A stretch of 64,000 nt of DNA from Dysgonomonas hofstadii (GTDB lineage Bacteria; Bacteroidota; Bacteroidia; Bacteroidales; Dysgonomonadaceae): positions 124,001 to 188,000 of the forward strand of contig NZ_JACIEP010000008.1 in the NCBI RefSeq assembly GCF_014196915.1, written 5' to 3'. This document shows, piece after piece, positions 3,663 to 12,834 of this stretch (position 1 is the stretch's first letter; every line of letters starts with the position of its first letter). The position numbers and the translations under genes are program-made. The notes under the pieces were generated by a model, which saw only the letters and a list, made by a program, of their open reading frames with translations, was not told the origin of the DNA and searched no databases.

Positions 3663-4757
3663 TTAGTTTTCTTTTTTCCACTCAATGGGAGAGAAACCTG
3701 TAATTTTCTTAAATTGACGGCTAAAAGAACTGTGGTCGGCATAACCTAATTGGGTAGCAATATCGGCTATGGGAAAATTAGTTGTGTCTTTTAATAGTTT
3801 TTTTGCATCTTCAATACGTAATGTGTTAACCCATGCATTAAAATTCATCTGCATATTATTGTTGATATAAGCCGACAGGTAAGTCCGATTCGTATTTAGC
3901 GTGTTAGCTAAACTAACTATAGTAATATTAGACTCAGTGTAAGCTTTGGATTCGACCCATTGTCTGATTAATTGAGACAGGTTATTTTGTGTTTTGTCCC
4001 CGTTAGAGTCAGTAACAGTCTCTTCTCTCAGTATTGTTACTTTGTTAAATATATAAGGATAATTAATATATTTAACCAGAAAACAGGTATAAAAAGTGCC
4101 ACATAATATCGCCACTACCAAATCGAAAACCGGATTAGGAAAAATAATAAGAGCCAAGGCTAAAATGCCGATGCCTAATGCAGAAAAAAAGACAATAGCT
4201 ACCCAATTGAGATGCTTTGCCTCATCGCCCGAGAAGTAGTTGTCGGCAGCAGAATGGTATTGTTTATATTCCTTTACGAAAGTGTGTGTATAAAAAATTA
4301 ATTGATACAAATAAAATGTAAGAAATGAATAGAATACGACTTTCTGAAAATAAGAGGCTGGCAGAAATAAGAAGAAGAAAGATAATATGCTAAAGGTCGA
4401 AATAGGTATTAATTGGCAGGTTAACCATCGTTTGGTAAAAAATGACGGATTGATTAATATAATAAGTGTATATGTAAATAGGAATGACTGAAAAGAACCT
4501 ATTGTCAATGTTATAGCTGCAACTATAAACATATCGGACTCTGATGCATTCGGTCCGTTCATTATGGCATTTATTCCACTAAGTACTCCGAAAATAAGGT
4601 ACGCATAAGCCATGGTTTTGCGTGATGCCCGATAATTATCCAACTCCGGAGTTGAAGGAATTGCTATGAGCAGCATCAGTAATGTCGAAAAGATAAGAAT
4701 CAGTGGTATTGCTGCATTTACAATGTAAAATATGGTTCCAAAATCCAACATGCTCAA
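3663..4757 (-). CDS. Membrane-anchored AraC-family regulator
   Basis: 364 aa. The first ~235 residues contain about seven hydrophobic segments (for example FYIVNAAIPLILIFSTLLML). The last ~90 residues form a double helix-turn-helix AraC domain, with VSLANTLNTNRTYLSAYIN and IADIATQLGYADHSSFSRQF as the recognition parts. Such seven-helix sensors fused to AraC domains are common in Bacteroidales. It is oriented towards the peptide and fimbrillin-like genes, with a candidate inverted operator pair between them, so it probably controls that operon. The sensed signal is unknown. Confidence 0.85.
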   Translation of the reverse strand: MSMLDFGTIFYIVNAAIPLILIFSTLLMLLIAIPSTPELDNYRASRKTMAYAYLIFGVLSGINAIMNGPNASESDMFIVAAITLTIGSFQSFLFTYTLIILINPSFFTKRWLTCQLIPISTFSILSFFFLFLPASYFQKVVFYSFLTFYLYQLIFYTHTFVKEYKQYHSAADNYFSGDEAKHLNWVAIVFFSALGIGILALALIIFPNPVFDLVVAILCGTFYTCFLVKYINYPYIFNKVTILREETVTDSNGDKTQNNLSQLIRQWVESKAYTESNITIVSLANTLNTNRTYLSAYINNNMQMNFNAWVNTLRIEDAKKLLKDTTNFPIADIATQLGYADHSSFSRQFKKITGFSPIEWKKEN

Positions 4758-4771
4758 TGTTTATTAGGGTG

Positions 4772-4779
4772 CAAATCTA
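4772..4779 (-). promoter_or_regulatory. -7 box of the AraC-type regulator gene
   Basis: Minus-strand TAGATTTG fits TAnnTTTG and lies 15 bp upstream of the regulator's start codon, so the leader is very short. Confidence 0.5.
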
Positions 4780-4955
4780 ATATTAAAAATTTGCAATTTT
4801 AACATGATGGGGAATTTTAATCAGATAGGTTCGAGATTAGGAATTATTCCTTATATTTGTGAATGGCTATTCGGCTTATGTAAAACTGTGCAAACACCAG
4901 TCCAAAAAACCGTTTCCAACTCGTTACCTCACTAAAAACCACTCTTTGTAACTGA

Positions 4956-5228
4956 TTGATAAAGAGTTCATGTTTTCAAGAAAACTGCTCTCTGAAAGAA
5001 ATTGCCGATTTGTGCCGTATAAAGAAGCAGCTCACGATACATTGCGGACGCCACACTTATGCGACTTCTGTCTATTTGGACAATGGGGTCAGTATCGAAA
5101 ATGTGGCCAAAATGCTGGGACATTCAGATACCAAAATGACTCGCCACTATGCTCGTGTACTTGATAAGAGTATTTTGAAAGATATGCGTAAAGTGAATGA
5201 ACGGTATAAGAATGACCAGTTTGAATAA
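4956..5228 (+). pseudogene. Tyrosine recombinase (integrase) C-terminal remnant
   Basis: About 90 codons match the end of a Bacteroidetes tyrosine integrase: the segment LKEIADLC, the HxxR box in HCGRHTYATS, the LGHSD box and the catalytic tyrosine in TRHYARV. The N-terminal and core domains with the first catalytic arginine are absent; the sequence before residue ~13 does not resemble an integrase. It can be read as a decayed integrase tail. It marks the left edge of the segment holding the NAD/ADP-ribose genes. Confidence 0.8.
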
Positions 5229-5344
5229 TAGACCATAATGAATCTAAATTAAATAAACTTATTAAATTTAGATGATGAAATCAAATTTGGGCTATGATTG
5301 CAGTGGCTGTAATTAGGCTACTAATCGATTAAATTTTAAAACAT

Positions 5345-5378
5345 GAGACTATCCCCTTTACAGGATAGTCTCTTTTTT
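5345..5378 (+). terminator. Rho-independent terminator
   Basis: GAGACTATCC (5345-5354) pairs perfectly with GGATAGTCTC (5363-5372), followed by a T run. It lies between the integrase remnant and the SPFH operon and would insulate the operon from read-through. The rest of 5229-5344 holds only a weak ATCTAAATT/AATTTAGAT inverted repeat (5242-5273). Confidence 0.85.
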
Positions 5379-5458
5379 GTTAGAAGGCCTATAAATAAAT
5401 GATAACAAATATTGTATTAGTATATATTATTTAGAGTTATTATAAATTAATTGTAATA

Positions 5459-5473
5459 ACGTATTTCTTACGT
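5459..5473. promoter_or_regulatory. Distal operator of the SPFH operon
   Basis: A perfect palindrome ACGTA-TTTCT-TACGT. It lies upstream of the -35-like region. Its centre is 56 bp from that of the proximal palindrome at 5515-5529. The same pair recurs in front of the NrtR-like gene (11812-11826 and 11868-11882). Confidence 0.75.
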
Positions 5474-5503
5474 TAATTTGCTTGCACATGAATTTATTTG
5501 ATA

Positions 5504-5511
5504 TAACTTTG
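5504..5511 (+). promoter_or_regulatory. -7 box of the SPFH operon
   Basis: TAACTTTG fits TAnnTTTG, with a TTG at 5482-5484 giving a 19-bp spacer. It lies between the two palindromes, and the proximal one begins 3 bp after it. A protein bound there would block initiation. Confidence 0.65.
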
Positions 5512-5514
5512 TTT

Positions 5515-5529
5515 ACGTAAATAATACGT
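5515..5529. promoter_or_regulatory. Proximal operator of the SPFH operon
   Basis: A perfect palindrome ACGTA-AATAA-TACGT, 3 bp downstream of the -7 box. With the upstream bases it forms a 23-bp block (5507-5529) that matches the block before the NrtR-like gene (11812-11834, minus) at 21 of 23 positions. Confidence 0.8.
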
Positions 5530-5569
5530 TATTTAAGTTATATAGTAACAACAACTAAATTTTACAGTT

Positions 5570-6592
5570 ATGCTTGGAATCAATCACAGCAAATTCGACT
5601 CGATGACCCATGTATTTTATTACAAAAATGGGATTTTAAAGAAAGAAGGACGCGGATTATCATTCTTCTATTTTGCACCAAACAGTGCAATTGTAGCTAT
5701 CCCTATGGGTAGTAATGATTTACCATTCATTTTTCAGGAATCGACTAACGACTATCAAAAAGTTACGATACAAGGTCAGATAAGCTACAAAATAAGCAAT
5801 CCTAAAATGTTGGCGGACGTATTGGATTTTACTGTAACTGATACAGAAACATATAAAAAGAATGATATTGAAAAGCTCAATCAGCGGATCATCAATGAAG
5901 CTCAGACTTCAACATCTTCTTTTATACACAATATCGGGTTGAAAGAAGCAATCCGTTCAGCCAAAGAAATGGAGCATCGTATTCTGGAAGGACTAAAATC
6001 TTCCGATGCCATTAATATGCTGGGAATAGAAATATTAGGTGCGAATGTCTTAGCTGTTCAGGCAACCCCTGAAATGTCAAAGGCTTTAGAGACAGAGACC
6101 CGTGAACGCTTGCAGCAGGAGGCGGATCAAGCGATATATGAAAGACGGAACTTTGCGGTGGAGCAGGAGCGTAAGATTAAAGAATCAGAATTGAATACCG
6201 AAATTGCCGTGGAAGAAAAACAAAAGCAGATTGATGAAAAGCGGATGGAGTCGGAAGTGCAGCGGATGGAAAACAATCGTAAACTACGAGAAATGAACAT
6301 CGAGGCTGATATTGTAGTCGAAAATCAGCGCAAGATATTTATTGAGCAAAAAACAGAGAACGACAAAAAAGAAGCCGAGGTGCAGGGATTTCAGATTGAA
6401 GCAATGCTGAAACCATACAAGGAAATGGACTGGAGATCGTTAACTGCTCTGGCCGGACATTCTGACGCTCGTAACAATATTGCCCTTGCATTTCGCGAAT
6501 TAGCACAAAATGCAGAGAAGATTGGTAACCTGAATATCAGTCCCGATTTGCTGGATTCTATTCTTAATAATGAAAGACCTGAGAAAAAATGA
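5570..6592 (+). CDS. SPFH/Band-7 domain protein without membrane anchor
   Basis: 340 aa. Residues ~10-175 resemble an SPFH (stomatin/prohibitin/flotillin) domain and ~175-275 are a highly charged coiled coil rich in E, K, Q and R. It ends in a short helical tail. SPFH proteins assemble into large oligomeric rings or cages, normally on membranes. Here no N-terminal transmembrane helix or signal peptide is visible, so it may be a soluble scaffold or attach by another means. Its stop overlaps the next start (ATGA at 6589-6592), implying coupling to the NAD-kinase-like gene. Two palindromes flank its promoter. Confidence 0.8.
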   Translation: MLGINHSKFDSMTHVFYYKNGILKKEGRGLSFFYFAPNSAIVAIPMGSNDLPFIFQESTNDYQKVTIQGQISYKISNPKMLADVLDFTVTDTETYKKNDIEKLNQRIINEAQTSTSSFIHNIGLKEAIRSAKEMEHRILEGLKSSDAINMLGIEILGANVLAVQATPEMSKALETETRERLQQEADQAIYERRNFAVEQERKIKESELNTEIAVEEKQKQIDEKRMESEVQRMENNRKLREMNIEADIVVENQRKIFIEQKTENDKKEAEVQGFQIEAMLKPYKEMDWRSLTALAGHSDARNNIALAFRELAQNAEKIGNLNISPDLLDSILNNERPEKK

Positions 6593-7509
6593 ATATAGAA
6601 TATGCAATCATAGTAAAGAATAAGACAAGGCTTGAGACTCTGGTTGAGCGCTTCAATACAAAGTCTCAGGCCAAGTTCTATATCGAACGGCTTGGCGGTG
6701 ACTTTCACGACTATGAAATGGAAGATGATATTTTCCATGACTCTCTGAATTCGCTGCAGTCTCAGTTATCGAAGGTGATAAAACACAAGATTGTAGACCG
6801 AACCTATCTTCCATCTTATCTGTTCTCTGATAAAAATATGATTGTTGTAATCGGACAAGATGGTCTGGTAGCCAATACTGCAAAATATTCGCACGCGAGA
6901 CCAATCGTAGCTGTAAATCCTGACAAACAACGTTATGATGGCATTCTTCTTCCTTTCGACACTACGAATTTTATCGATGGAGTTGAAAACGTCTTATCTG
7001 ATAATTATCAATCCTTAAAAGTCAATTTTGCCGAAGCTCATCTAAATGACGGTCAACGTCTATTAGCTTTTAACGACCTTTTTATAGGAGCATCATCCCA
7101 TATTTCTGCCAGATACAAATTGTCTTTTAATGAAAGTACAGAAGAACAGTCCTCCAGCGGGATAATTGTATCCACTCAGGCCGGCTCTACCGGATGGCTA
7201 AGCTCCGTATTCAACATGGCTTATGGAGTTACAGGTTTATTTGAAAAGAATATCAAGCCGAGACAACCTAAATTAAAAGAAAATCAACTCCTATTTGCTG
7301 TTCGTGAGCCTTTTAAGAGCATCCGTACACATGCTGATATTTCGGTAGGACTAATAAATAACCAAAAACATCTTCGCATAGAATCCCTGATGCCCACAGG
7401 AGGAATTATATTCAGCGATGGGATAGAATCGGATTTTCTACAATTTAACAGCGGGACTATTGCAACTATAGGAATTGCCAAGGAAACAGCTAATCTGGTA
7501 AAAATATAA
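6589..7509 (+). CDS. NAD-kinase-like protein
   Basis: 306 aa. The second half follows the NAD kinase fold: VVIGQDG (GQDG at residues 89-92 instead of GGDG, keeping the catalytic-type Asp), NDLFIG at 162-167 in place of the NE motif, and SSGIIVSTQAGSTGW (189-203) matching the DGLIVSTPTGSTAY-type box. NAD kinases phosphorylate NAD to NADP. With GGDG and the NE motif altered, activity could be conserved, shifted to another dinucleotide, or lost to leave a sensor. It is unlikely to be the housekeeping enzyme given its accessory operon. It overlaps the SPFH gene by 4 bp. Confidence 0.75.
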   Translation: MNIEYAIIVKNKTRLETLVERFNTKSQAKFYIERLGGDFHDYEMEDDIFHDSLNSLQSQLSKVIKHKIVDRTYLPSYLFSDKNMIVVIGQDGLVANTAKYSHARPIVAVNPDKQRYDGILLPFDTTNFIDGVENVLSDNYQSLKVNFAEAHLNDGQRLLAFNDLFIGASSHISARYKLSFNESTEEQSSSGIIVSTQAGSTGWLSSVFNMAYGVTGLFEKNIKPRQPKLKENQLLFAVREPFKSIRTHADISVGLINNQKHLRIESLMPTGGIIFSDGIESDFLQFNSGTIATIGIAKETANLVKI

Positions 7510-7522
7510 CACAAAATCAGTA

Positions 7523-7548
7523 CATTCGCATAAAATAATTTGCGAATG
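7523..7548 (+). promoter_or_regulatory. Hairpin covering the start codon of the methyltransferase-fusion gene
   Basis: CATTCGCA (7523-7530) and TGCGAATG (7541-7548) are perfect complements around a 10-base A/T loop. The last ATG of the right arm is the preferred start codon of the next gene. The structure would sequester the initiation site in mRNA, suggesting translational control or dosing of this large protein relative to the two upstream ones. Confidence 0.5.
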
Positions 7549-10035
7549 GATACCAACTATACAGGCCAAGACCGGGGAGATAAGAAAAATTATCAGCAAT
7601 ATCTGGAAGCGATGGATGCCATATCAGTAGAGAAAGTAGCTTCAGCCAGTGTATTTTTTGAGCCTAAGAAAGGTAATACAATTGTCGATGTAGGTATGGC
7701 ATCGGGTACAAGCACGGCCATACTTGCAAGACTTTTTCCTGAGATGAAAATAATCGGGATGGATATAAATCCCAAGATGGTACAAATCGCACAGGAAACA
7801 TATAATTATCCCAATTTATCTTTCAAGGAAGATGATGGCGAAAAACTGAACACATTTGCAAATAATTCTGTGAATGGATTCTTTAATTGCTCTGCTATCC
7901 ACCATATTACTTCGTATAATGGTTATGACACGAACAGAGCTCTAAATACCCTACGCAGACAAGTTGAGTTATTAAAGGATAAAGGAGTACTGATTATTCG
8001 TGACTTTGTGAAGCCCGAAGAGAAAGAGGTGATTCTCGAATTATCATCAATTGATAAGCCCAACCGGCCTAATGACGCAGAGTTATTTATACAGTTCTCA
8101 CAGACAGCACGATCATTGGCATTAACAAATGAAAGAGGCTTTCCTATACAGGAAATAAATGCGATAAAAAAAGATACCCGACGATTTCAGGCATTTTATA
8201 CCGATGTTGTTGAATTCATTCGTCGCAAAGACTATTATGCCAATTGGGATATTGAATTGCAGGAAGAATACGGATACTTTACGCAAGAAGAGTTTGAAGA
8301 AATATTTCGTGAGTCAGGCCTACGTATTATCCTCTCTTCTCCTATTTATAATCAATGGATTATTAATAACAGGTATAAAAATCAATTTGCTATATATAAT
8401 TTATCTGGAAAGGAGATCGGTTTTCCTCCTACCAATTACCTGATTGCCGGAGAGAAAATATCAGGAGGAAAACAGTTGCAACTTATAAGGCATCTTCCAG
8501 TTCGGGAAGATTCTTTTCTGCATTTTTCTTCGTATTTAAATCTCAAAACAAAAAAAATATATGATGTGGTAGCGCGTCCGAACAATGTACTTGATATTAT
8601 TCCTTATTATAAACATGAAAATGGCTTTACGATATTGGCGAAACACGGATATCCACGCCCTTTAGCGAATGTGAAAACAGATAGTGCCATCTTGGATGCT
8701 AAACATTATAGTGGTTACATCCCTGAAGGAATGACTGTTGGAGAAGCTGAAAATATAGAGGATATTCTGCATACACGATTTGGAATAAGTAAAGATCATT
8801 ATGCAGATGTTATTCAATCGCTCAATTACTATACATCTCCCGGAGGTATCAATGAGAAAGTATCTTCCACACTGATAGAATTAACAAAACCAGTAACTGT
8901 AAATAAAACTTTAGCAGATGGTTTCTCCGGTTTTAAAGAGTCGGGATATATTCACGAATATGATGCAGCTCAATTGCTGAATACAGCACAAACCGGGGCT
9001 TTAGTAGAAGCCCGGCTGGAACTGAATATTTACAATCTTTTTTTCAAGCAAAATACACCTCTTCCTAAATGGCTGGGAGAAAGAATGAAAATAAAATATG
9101 ACAGATTTATCAAGCCTGTTACTTTTTCGGAACTATTATCTTTGCAGACACAGGATTATGAGAAGAGTGAAAAATCTGCGGGTTTCCTGAATACCCGCAG
9201 AGCATATTTCTCCGAAATGGGAGTTGAAAACAGTAATGCAATATTTGAATATGTATATCCATCCACCGTAAGTTCAAACACCCTGGTCACATTACCTGTA
9301 TTCAGAAAGAACGGACAAATATATGTAGGACTGGAAGTACAGAGCCTACCTGTCCCACAGCTTCATTCGGGAAACAGTACAATAATAACCGCACCGGCCA
9401 AACGCTTACCGAAAGAAATTCACAATATACATGAATTGGAGAAATATATAACCAACATGAGGATTGGAAAAGGCAAAATTGAACGTTATTCCAAATTAGG
9501 TGAAAAATATTTCCCCAGTATCGGTGTAACGACTGAACAAGTTTATCCTTATCTCGTTTGCCTTAGTCGGGCTGATAAAAGTCTCAAATGGGTCAACCTT
9601 TCCGAATTGTATCACCACCTCAATAAGATTGAAGATGCTCATTTATTAATAAGTTTATGCAGGCTGATTCATGCGACAGATTTTCTCCCTCAACAACATG
9701 TAAGAGATTTTAGTTTCAAGAACTTTGTCGATTTTACTATTGATAGTTTTTGCTTACCAAGTGATGAATCTATAACAAGAGATACACTCGTTGAAAAAGA
9801 CCTAGGTATAACAGGGGATGATGGTGACGAATTTCTTTTAGCAATACAAGATGAGTTTGGAATAGACTTCCTTGATGAAAAAGGCTCAATAAGAAAAGCC
9901 TTCGACCTGAAAGAGAATGAATATCTATTTCATAGCGAAGGCATTAATTTGTTTCCTTTTAATAAAGAGAATATCAAACCATTAACAGTAGGTCAGCTTT
10001 ATGATGTAGTAGTAAAACTCGCAAAAGAGAAGTAA
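7546..10035 (+). CDS. SAM methyltransferase / NUDIX-like / DUF1493 fusion protein
   Basis: 829 aa from ATG 7546; a TTG two codons earlier is also possible. Residues ~35-190 form a class I methyltransferase: motif I VDVGMASGTS (47-56), acidic GMDIN at the end of strand 2, and a motif-IV-like FFNCSAIHH. The middle contains two stretches that look like degenerate NUDIX folds (one with YYTSPGGINE, the other with YFPSIGVTTEQVYPYLV); neither has an intact Nudix box. The last ~90 residues resemble DUF1493 (EKDLGITGDDGDEFL), an acyl-carrier-like fold lacking the phosphopantetheine serine. It is the third gene of the SPFH operon. Substrate unknown; an ADP-ribose- or NAD-type ligand is inferred from context. 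Confidence 0.6.
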   Translation: MDTNYTGQDRGDKKNYQQYLEAMDAISVEKVASASVFFEPKKGNTIVDVGMASGTSTAILARLFPEMKIIGMDINPKMVQIAQETYNYPNLSFKEDDGEKLNTFANNSVNGFFNCSAIHHITSYNGYDTNRALNTLRRQVELLKDKGVLIIRDFVKPEEKEVILELSSIDKPNRPNDAELFIQFSQTARSLALTNERGFPIQEINAIKKDTRRFQAFYTDVVEFIRRKDYYANWDIELQEEYGYFTQEEFEEIFRESGLRIILSSPIYNQWIINNRYKNQFAIYNLSGKEIGFPPTNYLIAGEKISGGKQLQLIRHLPVREDSFLHFSSYLNLKTKKIYDVVARPNNVLDIIPYYKHENGFTILAKHGYPRPLANVKTDSAILDAKHYSGYIPEGMTVGEAENIEDILHTRFGISKDHYADVIQSLNYYTSPGGINEKVSSTLIELTKPVTVNKTLADGFSGFKESGYIHEYDAAQLLNTAQTGALVEARLELNIYNLFFKQNTPLPKWLGERMKIKYDRFIKPVTFSELLSLQTQDYEKSEKSAGFLNTRRAYFSEMGVENSNAIFEYVYPSTVSSNTLVTLPVFRKNGQIYVGLEVQSLPVPQLHSGNSTIITAPAKRLPKEIHNIHELEKYITNMRIGKGKIERYSKLGEKYFPSIGVTTEQVYPYLVCLSRADKSLKWVNLSELYHHLNKIEDAHLLISLCRLIHATDFLPQQHVRDFSFKNFVDFTIDSFCLPSDESITRDTLVEKDLGITGDDGDEFLLAIQDEFGIDFLDEKGSIRKAFDLKENEYLFHSEGINLFPFNKENIKPLTVGQLYDVVVKLAKEK

Positions 10036-10042
10036 TAAGTTT

Positions 10043-10567
10043 TTACTCACCTAATATAGATTCGTATAGCTGATAATTTTCATCATCGAAACAAACAAAT
10101 ATAACTTCCTCTATATTTTTGTCTTCACTGTCAATAAACTGTTTTACGGTAGCAATAGCGATTTGTGCCGCTTCTGCTTTAGGAAAATGATAAACACCTG
10201 TACTGATGTTCGGGAATGCGATCGATTTTACAAGTAGAGATTCCGCTATCTCCAATGACTTTCTATAACATGAAGCTAATAGCTCAGGTTCTTTATTCTT
10301 TCCTCCGCTCCATATAGGACCAACAGTGTGTATAACATATTTAGCAGATAATAATCCGGCGGAAGTGTAAACAGCATCTCCGGCTTTACATTTTCCCTGA
10401 CGGTTGCGGATAGCTTTGCATTCTTCCAATATCTGAGAACCTCCTTTACAATGTATAGCTCCATCAACACCTCCACCTCCAAGCAGAGAGGAATTTGCCG
10501 CATTTACGATAGCATCGACAGCTATTGTCGTTATGTCGCTTTTTATAAGTTTTATTTCTGTTTTCAT
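10043..10567 (-). CDS. Macrodomain protein (O-acetyl-ADP-ribose deacetylase type)
   Basis: 174 aa from ATG 10567; the 8 residues of a longer frame lie within the previous gene. It has the MacroD/YmdB signature: [20 protein letters not shown] at ~20-39 and [18 protein letters not shown] further on. Such macrodomains bind ADP-ribose and remove acetyl or ADP-ribosyl groups from O-acetyl-ADP-ribose or from acidic residues on proteins. Its start overlaps the previous stop (ATGA, 10564-10567), so it is coupled to the crystallin J1-type gene. It is the last gene of the minus operon and converges with the methyltransferase fusion 7 bp away. Confidence 0.9.
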
Positions 10568-10977
10568 TTGTCTAAATATTTTAATACACATTGGATTGCT
10601 GCATCGTTGGATGATATATCAAAATTATCACCTTTAAATACTTTTACGATTTCTATCTGTCCGATAATATTACTATTAAATTCATTTAAATTTTCCGATG
10701 GAATCCACAACTCATTATGTATAAAACCTCCTACATTATGAACTTTATACTTTTGTAAATAGTCCGAGGGCAAATCAAATTTTGTCACAATACCACAATA
10801 GCCTGAAAATTCGTCTTTAGTATTCCATTTATCGGCTATCTGCTCAGCATATTCCTGATTGAGTACGGGATAAAAAATTGGTTGCCATTCCAATCGTGGA
10901 GGAAAAGCTTTAAAAGCTAAATCAATTATTAATTGTAGTTCCTTGAGGCCTATTGGCCTGTATAGTGTTGTTTTCAT
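10564..10977 (-). CDS. Small 'ADP-ribosylation/crystallin J1'-type protein
   Basis: 137 aa. It begins [17 protein letters not shown] and contains [36 protein letters not shown] and [10 protein letters not shown]. This pattern is typical of short proteins usually named 'ADP-ribosylation/crystallin J1' (name recalled, not searched). The name comes from association with ADP-ribosylglycohydrolases rather than from known activity. It is a soluble cytoplasmic protein. Translationally coupled to the downstream macrodomain gene by a 4-bp overlap and preceded by the NrtR-like gene. The linkage supports a role in ADP-ribose metabolism. Confidence 0.7.
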
Positions 10978-10979
10978 TG

Positions 10980-11102
10980 TTATAATTTTTTATTCAGTCT
11001 GTCACATAAATTGAAAATATCATCTTCACGTCCCAATTGTTTTGCCTCTAATGATGATTTAGCCTTTATTGAGTAGCCATTTGATATTGTATGTATTATA
11101 GT
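10980..11102 (-). other. 40-codon open frame without ATG between NrtR-like and crystallin J1-type genes
   Basis: Between the two minus-strand genes lies an open frame with no ATG, GTG or TTG start. Its last 24 residues look protein-like (KAKSSLEAKQLGREDDIFNL at the core) and its stop is 2 bp before the next start. It may be the C-terminal remnant of a deleted gene, or a small protein with a rare start. No family was recognised. Confidence 0.35.
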
Positions 11103-11803
11103 TCAAAATAAAACCCTGTTTTCGTGAGCTCTTCATACCTGTCTTTATCGAAGCTATACAGCTTAGGAGCTCTGTTACGGGCACCTCTTTGCATCTCTCC
11201 CGTATCAATCAACAGACCATAGCTCAATATCTTTTTCCGGAAATTGCGGTCATCCAGATCCGTTTGTAACACTGTTTTATATAAATGAAACAGATCAGGC
11301 AAAGTAAATTTTTCGGGAAGCAATTCAAATCCTATGGGCTGATATTTTATTTTTCCTTTGAGTCTTTCTTTTGCTGTCTCTAATATTTTTGCATGGTCAA
11401 AAGCCAGTTCAGGGATGTCGGAGATTGAGAACCATTTAATATTTGTTGTATCAATCCCGGCCTGCGCATTATAATCCGAAAGTTTTACCAGTGCATAATA
11501 TCCTATGCTGATAACCCGGAAGCGGGGATCACGCTTTACATCAGAAAAGGAATACAACTGTTCCATATAGATATTATCCAGACAAGTCTCTTTCTTTAAG
11601 ATACGTTTGGCGCATTCTTCCGCCGTTTCTTCTTCTCCGACAAAGCCTCCGGGTAAAGCCCATCGTCCGATAAACGGTTCAATAGATCTTTCTATTAGTA
11701 ATACTTTTAATTCACCTTCATCAAATCCGAATATAACACAGTCGGTAGTGACTGCCGGACGAGGATATTCGTATATATATTTTCCTTGTTGTTCCATCTG
11801 CAT
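11096..11803 (-). CDS. NrtR-like Nudix-related transcriptional regulator
   Basis: 235 aa. Residues ~15-150 form a Nudix domain (RWALPGGFVGEEETAEE). Residues ~165-235 form a winged-helix domain (DRNFRKKILSYGLLIDTGEM, then RAPKLYSFDKDRYEEL). The Nudix box reads RILKKETCL where active enzymes have RE-hydrophobic-x-EE-x-G: two of the three key glutamates and the glycine are replaced. It is therefore probably a sensor, not a hydrolase. NrtR-family regulators bind ADP-ribose-type ligands and control NAD metabolism. Palindromes in its own promoter match those of the SPFH operon, so it likely represses both operons. First gene of the minus operon. Confidence 0.85.
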   Translation of the reverse strand: MQMEQQGKYIYEYPRPAVTTDCVIFGFDEGELKVLLIERSIEPFIGRWALPGGFVGEEETAEECAKRILKKETCLDNIYMEQLYSFSDVKRDPRFRVISIGYYALVKLSDYNAQAGIDTTNIKWFSISDIPELAFDHAKILETAKERLKGKIKYQPIGFELLPEKFTLPDLFHLYKTVLQTDLDDRNFRKKILSYGLLIDTGEMQRGARNRAPKLYSFDKDRYEELTKTGFYFEL

Positions 11804-11811
11804 TTTTATTT

Positions 11812-11826
11812 ATGTATTATTTACGG
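11812..11826. promoter_or_regulatory. Proximal operator of the NrtR-like gene
   Basis: On the minus strand this reads CCGTA-AATAA-TACAT, a slightly imperfect copy of the SPFH proximal palindrome with an identical central pentamer. It ends 9 bp before the start codon. Positions 11812-11834 (minus) match 5507-5529 at 21 of 23 positions. Confidence 0.75.
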
Positions 11827-11829
11827 AAA

Positions 11830-11837
11830 CAAAGAAA
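11830..11837 (-). promoter_or_regulatory. Probable -7 box of the NrtR-like gene
   Basis: Minus-strand TTTCTTTG matches TAnnTTTG with one mismatch. It is 3 bp from the proximal operator, exactly as in the SPFH promoter. Confidence 0.5.
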
Positions 11838-11867
11838 AGGATAATTTTTGAAAAGAGGAAATAGTTT

Positions 11868-11882
11868 GCGTACTTTTTACGT
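11868..11882. promoter_or_regulatory. Distal operator of the NrtR-like gene
   Basis: GCGTA-CTTTT-TACGT on the plus strand, one mismatch from a perfect palindrome. Its centre is 56 bp from the proximal site, the same distance as in the SPFH control region. Confidence 0.7.
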
Positions 11883-11902
11883 ATAATGTTGTGGTAAAAA
11901 AC

Positions 11903-12208: not shown

Positions 12209-12834
12209 TTGCCGACAATACCCGAACGCATGGAGCGCACGAATGGTATGCTCTACCGCTTTAATTTGATGGTTAAGTCTGAAACGAGCAATAAAGACGA
12301 CTTTAATGTTATTCAAAACCGCTTTTTTGCCAAAGAAGTGGGAGGTATATTGTATAATTACAATCATGGTTATATTACTTCCGATCCGAAGGCGGCAGCA
12401 CTTAACTTCCTAGACGCCCTCGATACCATACCGAAATTTTTGGAGAAATACCAAACGGATAACGAAAAACTGAAAAAGAATATTCCTACGCTCAAAGAGG
12501 TAATCAAAGCTACTTGGCGAAAAAATATGGAACAAGTAGATGAAATGTTTCGTCAGACGGTTTTTAATGTTCTTACGGATAATAAAGACGACCATGCTAA
12601 AAACTTCAGTTTTATTTGTCGTGCAGGGAAGTGGTCACTATTATCTGCATATGACCGGGAAGAGTATAATGGAGAACATGCTACCTCTGCAAACAACAAT
12701 GTTTTCCTACTGTGAAAGATATGTTGGTTGTTCGAGAGACTATTCGCATTTCACAGAAGAAAGGAATAGAAATTATTGATTTTATAGCAGATAAATGTAA
12801 ATCTATTTTATCCCAAAGATTCAGCGACTCTTAA
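12209..12834 (+). pseudogene. Frameshifted hipA-type kinase remnant
   Basis: The frame 12209-12715 carries a HipA C-terminal pattern: MFRQTVFNVLTDNKDDHAKN, then GKWSLLSAYD and GEHATSANNN. It stops at 12715, but a shift of frame near 12705 restores FPTVKDMLVVRETIRIS through to TAA 12834. The N-terminal half of HipA is not recognisable, and the segment after the conserved Asp has a short deletion (DREEYNGEH). It is a decayed type II toxin of the HipBA family, with no hipB nearby. It marks the right edge of the NAD/ADP-ribose segment. Confidence 0.75.

What the first reader, a model, noticed from the sequence alone, without database searches (positions are those of the whole stretch)
5459..11882. 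Two convergent operons share the same double-palindrome control region at identical spacing
SPFH operon: perfect palindromes ACGTA-N5-TACGT at 5459-5473 and 5515-5529. NrtR-like gene (minus): related palindromes at 11868-11882 and 11812-11826. In both cases the centres are exactly 56 bp apart and the -7 box lies between them, ending 3 bp before the proximal site. The block 5507-5529 matches 11812-11834 (minus) at 21 of 23 bases, and the promoters are 6 kb apart on opposite strands. This is strong evidence for one regulon, probably controlled by the NrtR-like protein with ADP-ribose or a related molecule as ligand. The fixed spacing of more than five helical turns suggests cooperative binding or a small loop over the promoter.
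Basis: partly seen in the sequence, partly recalled or inferred. Interest (0 to 1): 0.9.

Follow-up and report, generated by a model that had tools for sequence, protein, structure and literature searches.

The report
ADP-ribose regulon with clamped promoters
Two neighbouring gene groups in a Dysgonomonas-type bacterium carry the same pair of repressor landing sites clamped around their promoters, and related bacteria carry such pairs before genes that make NAD or remove ADP-ribose, so they probably mark one ADP-ribose-sensing control circuit.

Summary
The palindromes at 5459-5473/5515-5529 and 11812-11826/11868-11882 are there, 56 bp apart, with the -7 box between. In the 5.04-Mb genome a double-site profile finds no other place below E 0.01. 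The site is a conserved operator of a Bacteroidota clade of NrtR-type (Nudix plus winged-helix) repressors. A matrix built only from nrtR promoters of 15 other genomes finds a site before SPFH in 20 of 21 loci that hold nrtR, against 1 of 58 without. Of 76 strong hits in 1.21 Mb, 73 precede SPFH, NADAR, nrtR or macro genes. Relatives add PARG, KptA-ARH-macro and TonB-PnuC-NadR. This supports one regulon for ADP-ribose removal, RNA repair and NAD salvage, run by the NrtR-like protein. ADP-ribose as inducer is plausible but untested. A loop is not supported: spacing varies (mostly 52, 53, 54, 56, 57 bp) and follows the -33/-7 gap, each site being tied to its own promoter element. New are regulon content and cis code; the regulator family and the idea of Nudix repressors over ADP-ribose systems are published.

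The parts
5456..5476 (.). distal operator of the SPFH operon (core 5459-5473)
   Evidence: conserved at the same place in L011 (one extra base), L012, L014; below 8 bits with the cross-genus matrix
5481..5484 (+). probable -33 element (CTTG), 19 bp before the -7 box
   Evidence: read; TTTG with a 19-bp gap read in L011, L012 and L014
5504..5511 (+). -7 box TAACTTTG (TAnnTTTG)
   Evidence: TAnnTTTG in all five distinct Dysgonomonas-group SPFH promoters read (window, L011, L012, L013, L014)
5512..5532 (.). proximal operator of the SPFH operon (core 5515-5529)
5570..6592 (+). SPFH/Band 7 protein
   Evidence: Pfam Band_7, E 7.9e-13; 65-95% identical relatives in the 80 loci kept
6589..7509 (+). 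NAD-kinase-fold protein
   Evidence: weak NCBIfam NAD kinase matches, below cut-offs; model pLDDT 89.8, Foldseek best hits are NAD kinases, E 7.7e-19; conserved motifs in 27 sequences
7546..10035 (+). SAM-dependent methyltransferase domain with long C-terminal part
   Evidence: Pfam Methyltransf_25; homologue ends a TonB-PnuC-NadR gene row in L176
10043..10570 (-). macrodomain protein (O-acetyl-ADP-ribose deacetylase type)
   Evidence: Pfam Macro E 8.7e-47; NCBIfam NF001664 above cut-off
10564..10977 (-). conserved small protein, fused to PARG in Chryseobacterium L045; possible ADP-ribosyltransferase-like fold
   Evidence: Foldseek E 0.007 at best, TM 0.47 by query length: weak
10978..11106 (-). 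deletion scar holding pieces of a NADAR gene run into the 3' end of an ADP-ribosylglycohydrolase gene
   Evidence: tblastn with L121, L141 and L142 proteins
11096..11803 (-). NrtR-type regulator: Nudix domain plus NrtR winged helix (start may be 11797)
   Evidence: Pfam NrtR_WHD 85 bits, NUDIX, AraR_C; tree
11809..11829 (.). proximal operator of nrtR (core 11812-11826)
   Evidence: conserved in L011, L014, L092, L141
11830..11837 (-). -7 box of nrtR (TTTCTTTG)
   Evidence: read; aligned
11858..11861 (-). possible -33 element of nrtR (TTTC, weak)
   Evidence: read; no TTG found there by the script
11865..11885 (.). distal operator of nrtR (core 11868-11882)
   Evidence: conserved in L014, L092, L141 and, less well, L011

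Best explanation
The four palindromes are two operator pairs for the NrtR-type repressor encoded at 11096-11803. Each pair clamps one promoter: one dimer sits just upstream of the -33 element and one on or just after the -7 box, so both block RNA polymerase. The repressor controls itself, with the macrodomain gene behind it, and the SPFH/NAD-kinase-like/methyltransferase operon. Free ADP-ribose (or a close derivative), made when NAD is broken down or when ADP-ribose is stripped from proteins or nucleic acids, binds the Nudix domain and releases the repressor. The regulon then supplies erasers of ADP-ribose and, in relatives, RNA repair and NAD resynthesis. Shown by sequence: sites, geometry, conservation, gene content, family. 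Inferred: binding, repression, ligand, physiology.
For: The pairs are all but unique in the genome. A matrix from 30 sites in nrtR promoters of 15 other genomes predicts SPFH sites in 20 of 21 loci with nrtR and 1 of 58 without (Fisher 1.6e-16; collapsed to taxon groups 6 of 7 against 1 of 47, 1.9e-6). 73 of 76 hits of 12 bits or more in 80 loci lie before SPFH (34), NADAR (20), nrtR (18) or macro (1). A pattern search of 25 genus genomes listed 28 distinct places by my count; 12 are at 52, 56 or 57 bp, and all 12 precede nrtR, SPFH, PARG, KptA-ARH-macro or a TonB-PnuC-NadR gene row. Geometry: of 54 unique pairs at 51-57 bp, 50 have the -7 TTTG at the expected place and 43 also a -33, which starts 24-27 bp from the start of the distal site in all 43; spacing follows the -33/-7 gap, rho 0.89, n 39. 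Regulator: Nudix plus NrtR winged helix; clade of 58 leaves, support 0.93, without BtAraR or three of the genome's other family members; Arg at the SoNrtR Arg98 place in 51 of 55 sequences, Gly in BtAraR.
Against: No binding data. Two of four SoNrtR ADP-ribose contacts compared are not kept (Asn43 is Ile, Lys76 is Glu in the window). The NCBIfam ADPR-responsive repressor model scores 149.8 bits against a cut-off of 400. L069 has nrtR with its own pair but no site before SPFH. A paralogue in the same genome beside a glycosidase gene (C17) has similar paired sites, GCGTA half-sites 53 bp apart, so cross-binding is possible. The distal SPFH site scores under 8 bits with the cross-genus matrix, and neither window promoter is among the 43. 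The genus pattern as a whole is not more frequent than its control. Relatives share descent, so the p-values overstate independence.
Confidence: 0.8

Rival explanations
1. Cooperative looping: the two dimers touch across a 56-bp loop and the fixed distance reflects helical phase.
For: Two sites at a fixed distance in both promoters. Spacing is sharply peaked: 54 of 77 unique site pairs within 150 bp lie at 51-57 bp (15 of them are the training pairs, chosen for 52-53 bp, and some loci were found with a double-site tool), and 20 of 33 in the 80 SPFH loci, which were not chosen by spacing.
Against: Spacing differs by lineage, mostly 52, 53, 54, 56 and 57 bp, which are not whole turns of each other, and follows the promoter spacer. 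Single sites serve nrtR in Chryseobacterium.
Confidence: 0.12
2. Another NrtR paralogue binds these sites, and the neighbouring NrtR-like protein binds elsewhere.
For: Other family members in the genome (C11, C17, C1 and a partial one with a stop on C2); the C17 one has paired GCGTA sites at 53 bp, so motifs overlap.
Against: C17 and C1 paralogues lie beside glycosidase and sugar-kinase/isomerase-like genes (the neighbours of C11 gave no clue); the three tested lie outside the clade (C2 not in the tree); sites go with this nrtR type in other genomes.
Confidence: 0.07
3. The similarity of the two regions is recent duplication of one promoter, not shared regulation.
For: 21 of 23 identical block plus a shared AAACTATTT-like stretch after the distal site in some SPFH promoters.
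Against: In the nine promoters aligned the stretch between -33 and -7 is poorly conserved while operators and the TTTG box are; the same kind of operator stands before unrelated genes in relatives. Duplication may have given rise to the pair, but selection keeps the sites.
Confidence: 0.05
4. The regulator answers to a different ligand (NAD, NADP, nicotinamide riboside, a pentose) though it binds these sites.
For: BtAraR, a relative, senses L-arabinose (PMC4666351, passages and sections 12 and 14 read); two of four aligned ADP-ribose contacts differ here.
Against: The identified target genes deal with ADP-ribose and NAD; the arginine lost in BtAraR is kept.
Confidence: 0.3

Closest known systems
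NrtR family (Nudix-related regulators of NAD metabolism; the founding 2008 paper is not held, known here through passages of PMC4666351 and PMC6800001)
   Same: Nudix domain plus NrtR winged helix; palindromic operator before its own gene; some relatives sit with NAPRTase and NAD synthase genes, or have operators before PnuC-NadR genes
   Different: many targets are ADP-ribose hydrolases, KptA and SPFH-NAD-kinase-like genes; paired operators clamp the Bacteroidota -33/-7 promoter; 35 of 55 sequences compared keep an intact Nudix box, the window protein does not
AraR/XylR of Bacteroides (PMC4666351 passages and sections 12 and 14; PMC3878776 passages)
   Same: same phylum and protein family; 21-bp sites, sometimes two per promoter
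   Different: sugar genes, L-arabinose as ligand of AraR, tandem sites 3 bp or 42 nt apart; Gly in place of the Arg that contacts ADP-ribose in SoNrtR
ARG-centred systems with Nudix or WYL repressors, a prediction in PMC9503650 (passages and section 3.8 read)
   Same: Nudix-HTH repressor beside ADP-ribosylglycohydrolase, macro and NADAR genes; ADP-ribose proposed as inducer
   Different: the section names actinobacteria, planctomycetes and proteobacteria; in it I saw no operators and no SPFH, NAD kinase or KptA partners
LexA-controlled NADAR (ybiA) operon of E. coli (PMC11125620 passages)
   Same: NADAR under a stress-responsive repressor
   Different: LexA and DNA damage instead of a Nudix sensor

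Membership tests
NrtR family | N-terminal Nudix-like domain and C-terminal NrtR winged helix | tested here: met
   Pfam NUDIX 60.2 bits and NrtR_WHD 85.0 bits, above cut-offs; solved relatives 3gz5/3gz6 and 5bs6
NrtR family | palindromic operator before its own gene and its targets | tested here: met
   as sequence; binding not tested
NrtR family | targets in NAD metabolism | tested here: met
   in relatives NAPRTase and NAD synthase beside nrtR (L123), operator pair before TonB-PnuC-NadR; in the window a NAD-kinase-fold protein
NrtR family | degenerate Nudix box (usual in the family according to PMC4666351 and PMC6800001 passages) | tested here: met
   window box has lost three of the seven signature residues; 35 of the 55 sequences compared keep all
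NrtR family | ADP-ribose contacts of SoNrtR (Arg41, Asn43, Lys76, Arg98) | tested here: inconclusive
   Arg41 and Arg98 kept, Asn43 and Lys76 not
NrtR family | ADP-ribose releases the protein from DNA | not testable with these tools
   needs purified protein
NCBIfam NF050029 ADPR-responsive repressor equivalog | score above the curated cut-off of 400 bits | tested here: not met
   149.8 bits
AraR/XylR | sugar catabolism genes as neighbours | tested here: not met
AraR/XylR | Gly at the SoNrtR Arg98 place, as in BtAraR | tested here: not met
   Arg in the window
AraR/XylR | AraR C-terminal domain match | tested here: met
   AraR_C 57.9 bits, but NrtR_WHD is higher at 85.0
ARG-centred Nudix-repressor system | ADP-ribosylglycohydrolase gene in the operon | tested here: not met
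   only a scar of it in the window; whole open frames in L141, L142, L173
NAD kinase | NAD kinase fold | tested here: met
   predicted model; Foldseek top hits NAD kinases, E 7.7e-19
NAD kinase | score above NCBIfam NAD kinase cut-offs | tested here: not met
   best 26.8 bits against 211; activity not testable here

The most novel reading that the evidence does not exclude
A phylum-wide ADP-ribose alarm in Bacteroidota: free ADP-ribose released from modified proteins, DNA or RNA lifts an NrtR-type repressor from promoter-clamping operator pairs and induces a variable set of erasers (NADAR, PARG, ARH, macrodomain), RNA repair (KptA, RNA ligase), NAD resynthesis and an SPFH/NAD-kinase-like module, much as LexA does for DNA damage. 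The small 10564-10977 protein, fused to PARG in a relative, could be an ADP-ribosyltransferase-fold partner. Where the Nudix box is intact the repressor may also destroy its own inducer.
Probability: 0.35. Interest if true: 0.8.

Novelty: new variant of a known kind. Interest (0 to 1): 0.6.

Why it matters
It turns a pair of palindromes into a readable cis code (RYGTA-N5-TACRY twice, around TTTG, 19-21 bp, TAnnTTTG) that picks out ADP-ribose and NAD genes in several Bacteroidota lineages. That makes a predicted but untested idea, that bacteria sense ADP-ribosylation through Nudix repressors, directly testable in non-pathogenic laboratory strains, and gives a handle on the very conserved SPFH/NAD-kinase-like pair, for which the searches made here found no study. 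The mix of intact and lost Nudix boxes within one regulon also offers a natural series for asking whether NrtR proteins can be sensor and enzyme at once.

Tried and rejected
Single-site scans of ACGTA-N5-TACGT are at chance level in the window and below the reversed control in the genome; only the pair carries weight. A score against shuffled upstreams was replaced by the independently trained matrix. In one search locus L013 was scored from a wrong start (its SPFH frame is broken and the contig gives 88 bp upstream) and L081 was left out; one search uses the starts, drops L013, includes L081, scores 79 of 80 loci and gives the same 20 of 21 and 1 of 58. The one positive without nrtR in its locus, L055, has an nrtR of the Chryseobacterium type elsewhere on its contig. 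L068 has a site before macro-SPFH-NADK and was counted as negative for SPFH. L052 and L070 have GTTTA-type palindromes over the -7 box that the matrix scores under 10; not counted. Many site-negative genomes hold other NrtR relatives: 33 of the 49 genomes searched (three of them L055, L068 and L069) have a match at E 1e-25 or better, so the link is to this clade, not to any NrtR.

The family scan gave matches in 37 of 101 genomes at E 0.01 or better, many near the limit. Beyond the loci already known I looked at G013, G090, G010, G021, G033, G072 and G080: the first four fit, G033 ends just after the pair so its target is unseen, and G072 and G080 carry no matrix hit and look like another palindrome; the weaker ones were not examined. 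The gap-30-60 pattern in 25 genus genomes is not enriched overall (22 forward matches against 23 for the control, my sums of the table); the claim rests on the 12 places at 52, 56 or 57 bp, and the neighbours of the other 16 places were not examined. In one search, 11 of 54 pairs lacked the -7 or the -33 under the rule used (TTTG or NTTG, gap 17-23), among them the window's own nrtR promoter; the window's SPFH pair is not in the set because its distal site is under 8 bits. The third exact palindrome of the genome (C5) lies inside a 296-residue open frame.

Paper searches with NrtR+NADAR, SPFH+NAD kinase+ADP-ribosylation, NrtR+ADP-ribosylglycohydrolase and Chryseobacterium+NADAR+Tpt1+PARG listed no paper whose title or abstract start describes this regulon (one search listed 15 of 69); the library is open-access only, and the founding NrtR paper could not be read.


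Full report
What was checked. The palindromes, their 56-bp spacing, the position of the -7 boxes and the 21-of-23 block are all in the sequence as described. Taken singly the palindromes mean little: 16 sites with up to two mismatches in the window against 17.0 expected, and in the 5.04-Mb genome 3 exact sites and 67 with up to one mismatch, fewer than the reversed control with 186. Taken as pairs they stand out. The pattern CGTA-N5-TAC, gap 30-60, CGTA-N5-TAC occurs at four distinct places in the genome; two are these promoters, and only they are at 56 bp. A sequence profile of the whole double site, built from nine promoters (the two window ones included), gives 7.9e-19 and 9.0e-15 for the window promoters, 0.0039 for the other strand of one of them and 0.011 for the best other place (150 of 3419 first-look candidates were scored).

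The genes. The plus-strand operon encodes an SPFH protein, a protein with a predicted NAD kinase fold and a methyltransferase with a long C-terminal part. The minus-strand operon encodes the NrtR-type regulator, a small conserved protein and a macrodomain protein. Between the regulator and the small protein lies a 129-bp scar with pieces of a NADAR gene run into the end of an ADP-ribosylglycohydrolase gene; close relatives (L142, the genome of L011, and L141, the genome of L012) have open frames for both. So this strain carries a reduced form of a larger ADP-ribose cluster.

Relatives. A scan of one genome per species with the SPFH protein kept the best 80 of 94 loci. The NAD-kinase-like gene was found in 77 of the 80 and is the next gene after SPFH in 76. 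Loci of the Chryseobacterium group hold, in varying sets, nrtR, NADAR, macro, Sir2, ADP-ribosylglycohydrolase, KptA, microbial PARG, metallophosphatase and DUF4291 genes. A search of 295 genomes of the order with the regulator found 45 with E of 1e-60 or better; the best 30 places were fetched. Many of their nrtR promoters carry two palindromes with half-sites GTGTA or GCGTA instead of ACGTA; some of the more distant ones carry one or none. Neighbours of nrtR there include NAPRTase and NAD synthase (L123), ADP-ribosylglycohydrolase (L136), or a PP2C phosphatase, a protein kinase and weak isochorismatase-like and vWA matches (L126).

The key test. A 21-bp matrix was trained on 30 sites from the nrtR promoters of 15 of those genomes, chosen because they show a pair at 52-53 bp; no SPFH promoter was used. 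Applied to 300 bp before SPFH, it finds a site of 10 bits or more in 20 of 21 loci that hold nrtR and in 1 of 58 that do not (Fisher 1.6e-16; same counts with corrected starts). Collapsed to taxon groups it is 6 of 7 against 1 of 47 (1.9e-6). At 12 bits it is 18 of 21 against 1 of 58. The single nrtR-bearing negative is L069; the single positive without nrtR in the locus, L055, has one elsewhere on its contig. Over all 80 loci, 1.21 Mb, 76 hits reach 12 bits: 34 before SPFH, 20 before NADAR, 18 before nrtR, 1 before macro, 3 elsewhere. Most of the positive loci are Chryseobacterium, so the evidence is less independent than the first p-value suggests.

More targets. A family-wide profile scan and a pattern search of 25 genus genomes brought further pairs. 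By my count the pattern search lists 28 distinct places; 12 have spacing 52, 56 or 57 bp, and all 12 stand before an ADP-ribose or NAD gene group: nrtR (window, G010, G016, G021, G022), SPFH (window, G016), PARG (G010, G021), KptA-ARH-macro (G016) and a gene row with TonB receptor, PnuC and NadR-like genes (G010, G021), which in G021 starts with two other genes and ends with the methyltransferase homologue. The pattern as a whole is not more frequent than its control, so chance matches at other spacings are common.

Geometry. Among the loci held, 77 unique pairs of sites lie within 150 bp, 54 of them at 51-57 bp. This set includes the 15 training pairs and loci found with a double-site profile; in the 80 SPFH loci alone, not chosen by spacing, it is 20 of 33, 16 of them at 54 bp in the Chryseobacterium group. 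Of the 54, 50 have TTTG at the first four bases of the proximal site or directly before it, and 43 also have a -33 element; its distance from the start of the distal site is 25 bp in 32 and 24-27 in all 43. In the overlapping class the spacing rises with the -33/-7 gap, mostly 52 with 19, 53 with 20, 54 with 21 (rho 0.89, n 39). In the window's group the proximal site lies 4 bp further downstream, giving 56. Neither window promoter is among the 43: the nrtR one has no TTG at -33 and the SPFH distal site is under 8 bits. The spacing is best read as the sum of promoter distances. Two dimers clamp the promoter; a phased loop is not needed and the 52-57 range speaks against it.

The regulator. It has the Nudix and NrtR winged-helix domains and solved relatives SoNrtR (3gz5, 3gz6) and BtAraR (5bs6). 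In a tree of family members it falls in a clade of 58 (support 0.93) with the Chryseobacterium proteins, away from BtAraR and from three other family members of its own genome (a fourth, partial and with a stop, was not included). Two of those three sit beside glycosidase or sugar-kinase and isomerase-like genes; the third gave no clue. Of four SoNrtR contacts to ADP-ribose named in PMC4666351 (section 14 read), Arg41 and Arg98 are kept and Asn43 and Lys76 are not; BtAraR has Gly in place of Arg98, while 51 of 55 sequences here have Arg. The Nudix box has lost three signature residues in the window but is intact in 35 of the 55.

Mechanism, shown and inferred. Shown by sequence: the operators, their tie to promoter boxes, their presence with this nrtR clade and their target genes. 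Inferred: the protein binds them, represses, and is released by ADP-ribose or a close derivative. The inducer would arise from NAD breakdown or from the erasers themselves, as proposed for other Nudix-repressor systems in PMC9503650 (section 3.8 read). The SPFH/NAD-kinase-like pair is widespread without nrtR nearby, so its role is wider than this regulon.

Compared with what is known. NrtR regulators of NAD metabolism, the sugar-sensing AraR/XylR branch in Bacteroides, and the prediction that Nudix repressors control ADP-ribosylglycohydrolase systems are all published (PMC6800001 passages; PMC4666351 passages and sections 12 and 14; PMC3878776 passages; PMC9503650 passages and section 3.8). 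I saw no description of this operator code or of this target set in the listings of the searches made, which cover open-access papers only; the founding NrtR paper was not readable. I rate it a new variant of a known kind.

Noticed in passing
window 10978-11106 (-): Deletion scar: start and a middle piece of a NADAR gene run into the 3' end of an ADP-ribosylglycohydrolase gene; close relatives have open frames for both.
   Followed up: yes
window 10564-10977 (-); L045 10673-11902: The small conserved protein is fused to microbial PARG in Chryseobacterium L045; its model resembles ADP-ribosyltransferase folds (Tre toxin, Tpt1/KptA) only weakly.
   Followed up: partly
nrtR relatives: Nudix catalytic box intact in 35 of 55 sequences, lost in the nine Dysgonomonas-group ones, so some of these repressors may also be enzymes.
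   Followed up: partly
L017, L071, L076, L083, L086, L087: SPFH/NAD-kinase-like pair, SPFH 65-78% identical, in records labelled as Thalassovita, Methylovulum, Marinicella, Endomicrobia, Gammaproteobacteria and Lysobacterales (mostly metagenome bins): horizontal transfer or misbinning.
   Followed up: no
own genome C17, L217 near 4476-5453: An NrtR paralogue divergent from a GH3 glycosidase gene has its own paired GCGTA palindromes 53 bp apart.
   Followed up: partly
L126; similar gene sizes in L127 and L128: nrtR (about 60% identical) followed by genes with weak isochorismatase and vWA matches, a PP2C phosphatase and a protein kinase (Pfam run on L126 only): a different operon type behind the same kind of operator pair.
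   Followed up: no
L172 7839-10362: HD/AAA kinase, RNA ligase and KptA genes next to nrtR: an RNA repair set.
   Followed up: no
window 4956-5228 and 12209-12715: Short integrase-like and HipA_C-like open frames, probably remnants, flank the cluster.
   Followed up: no
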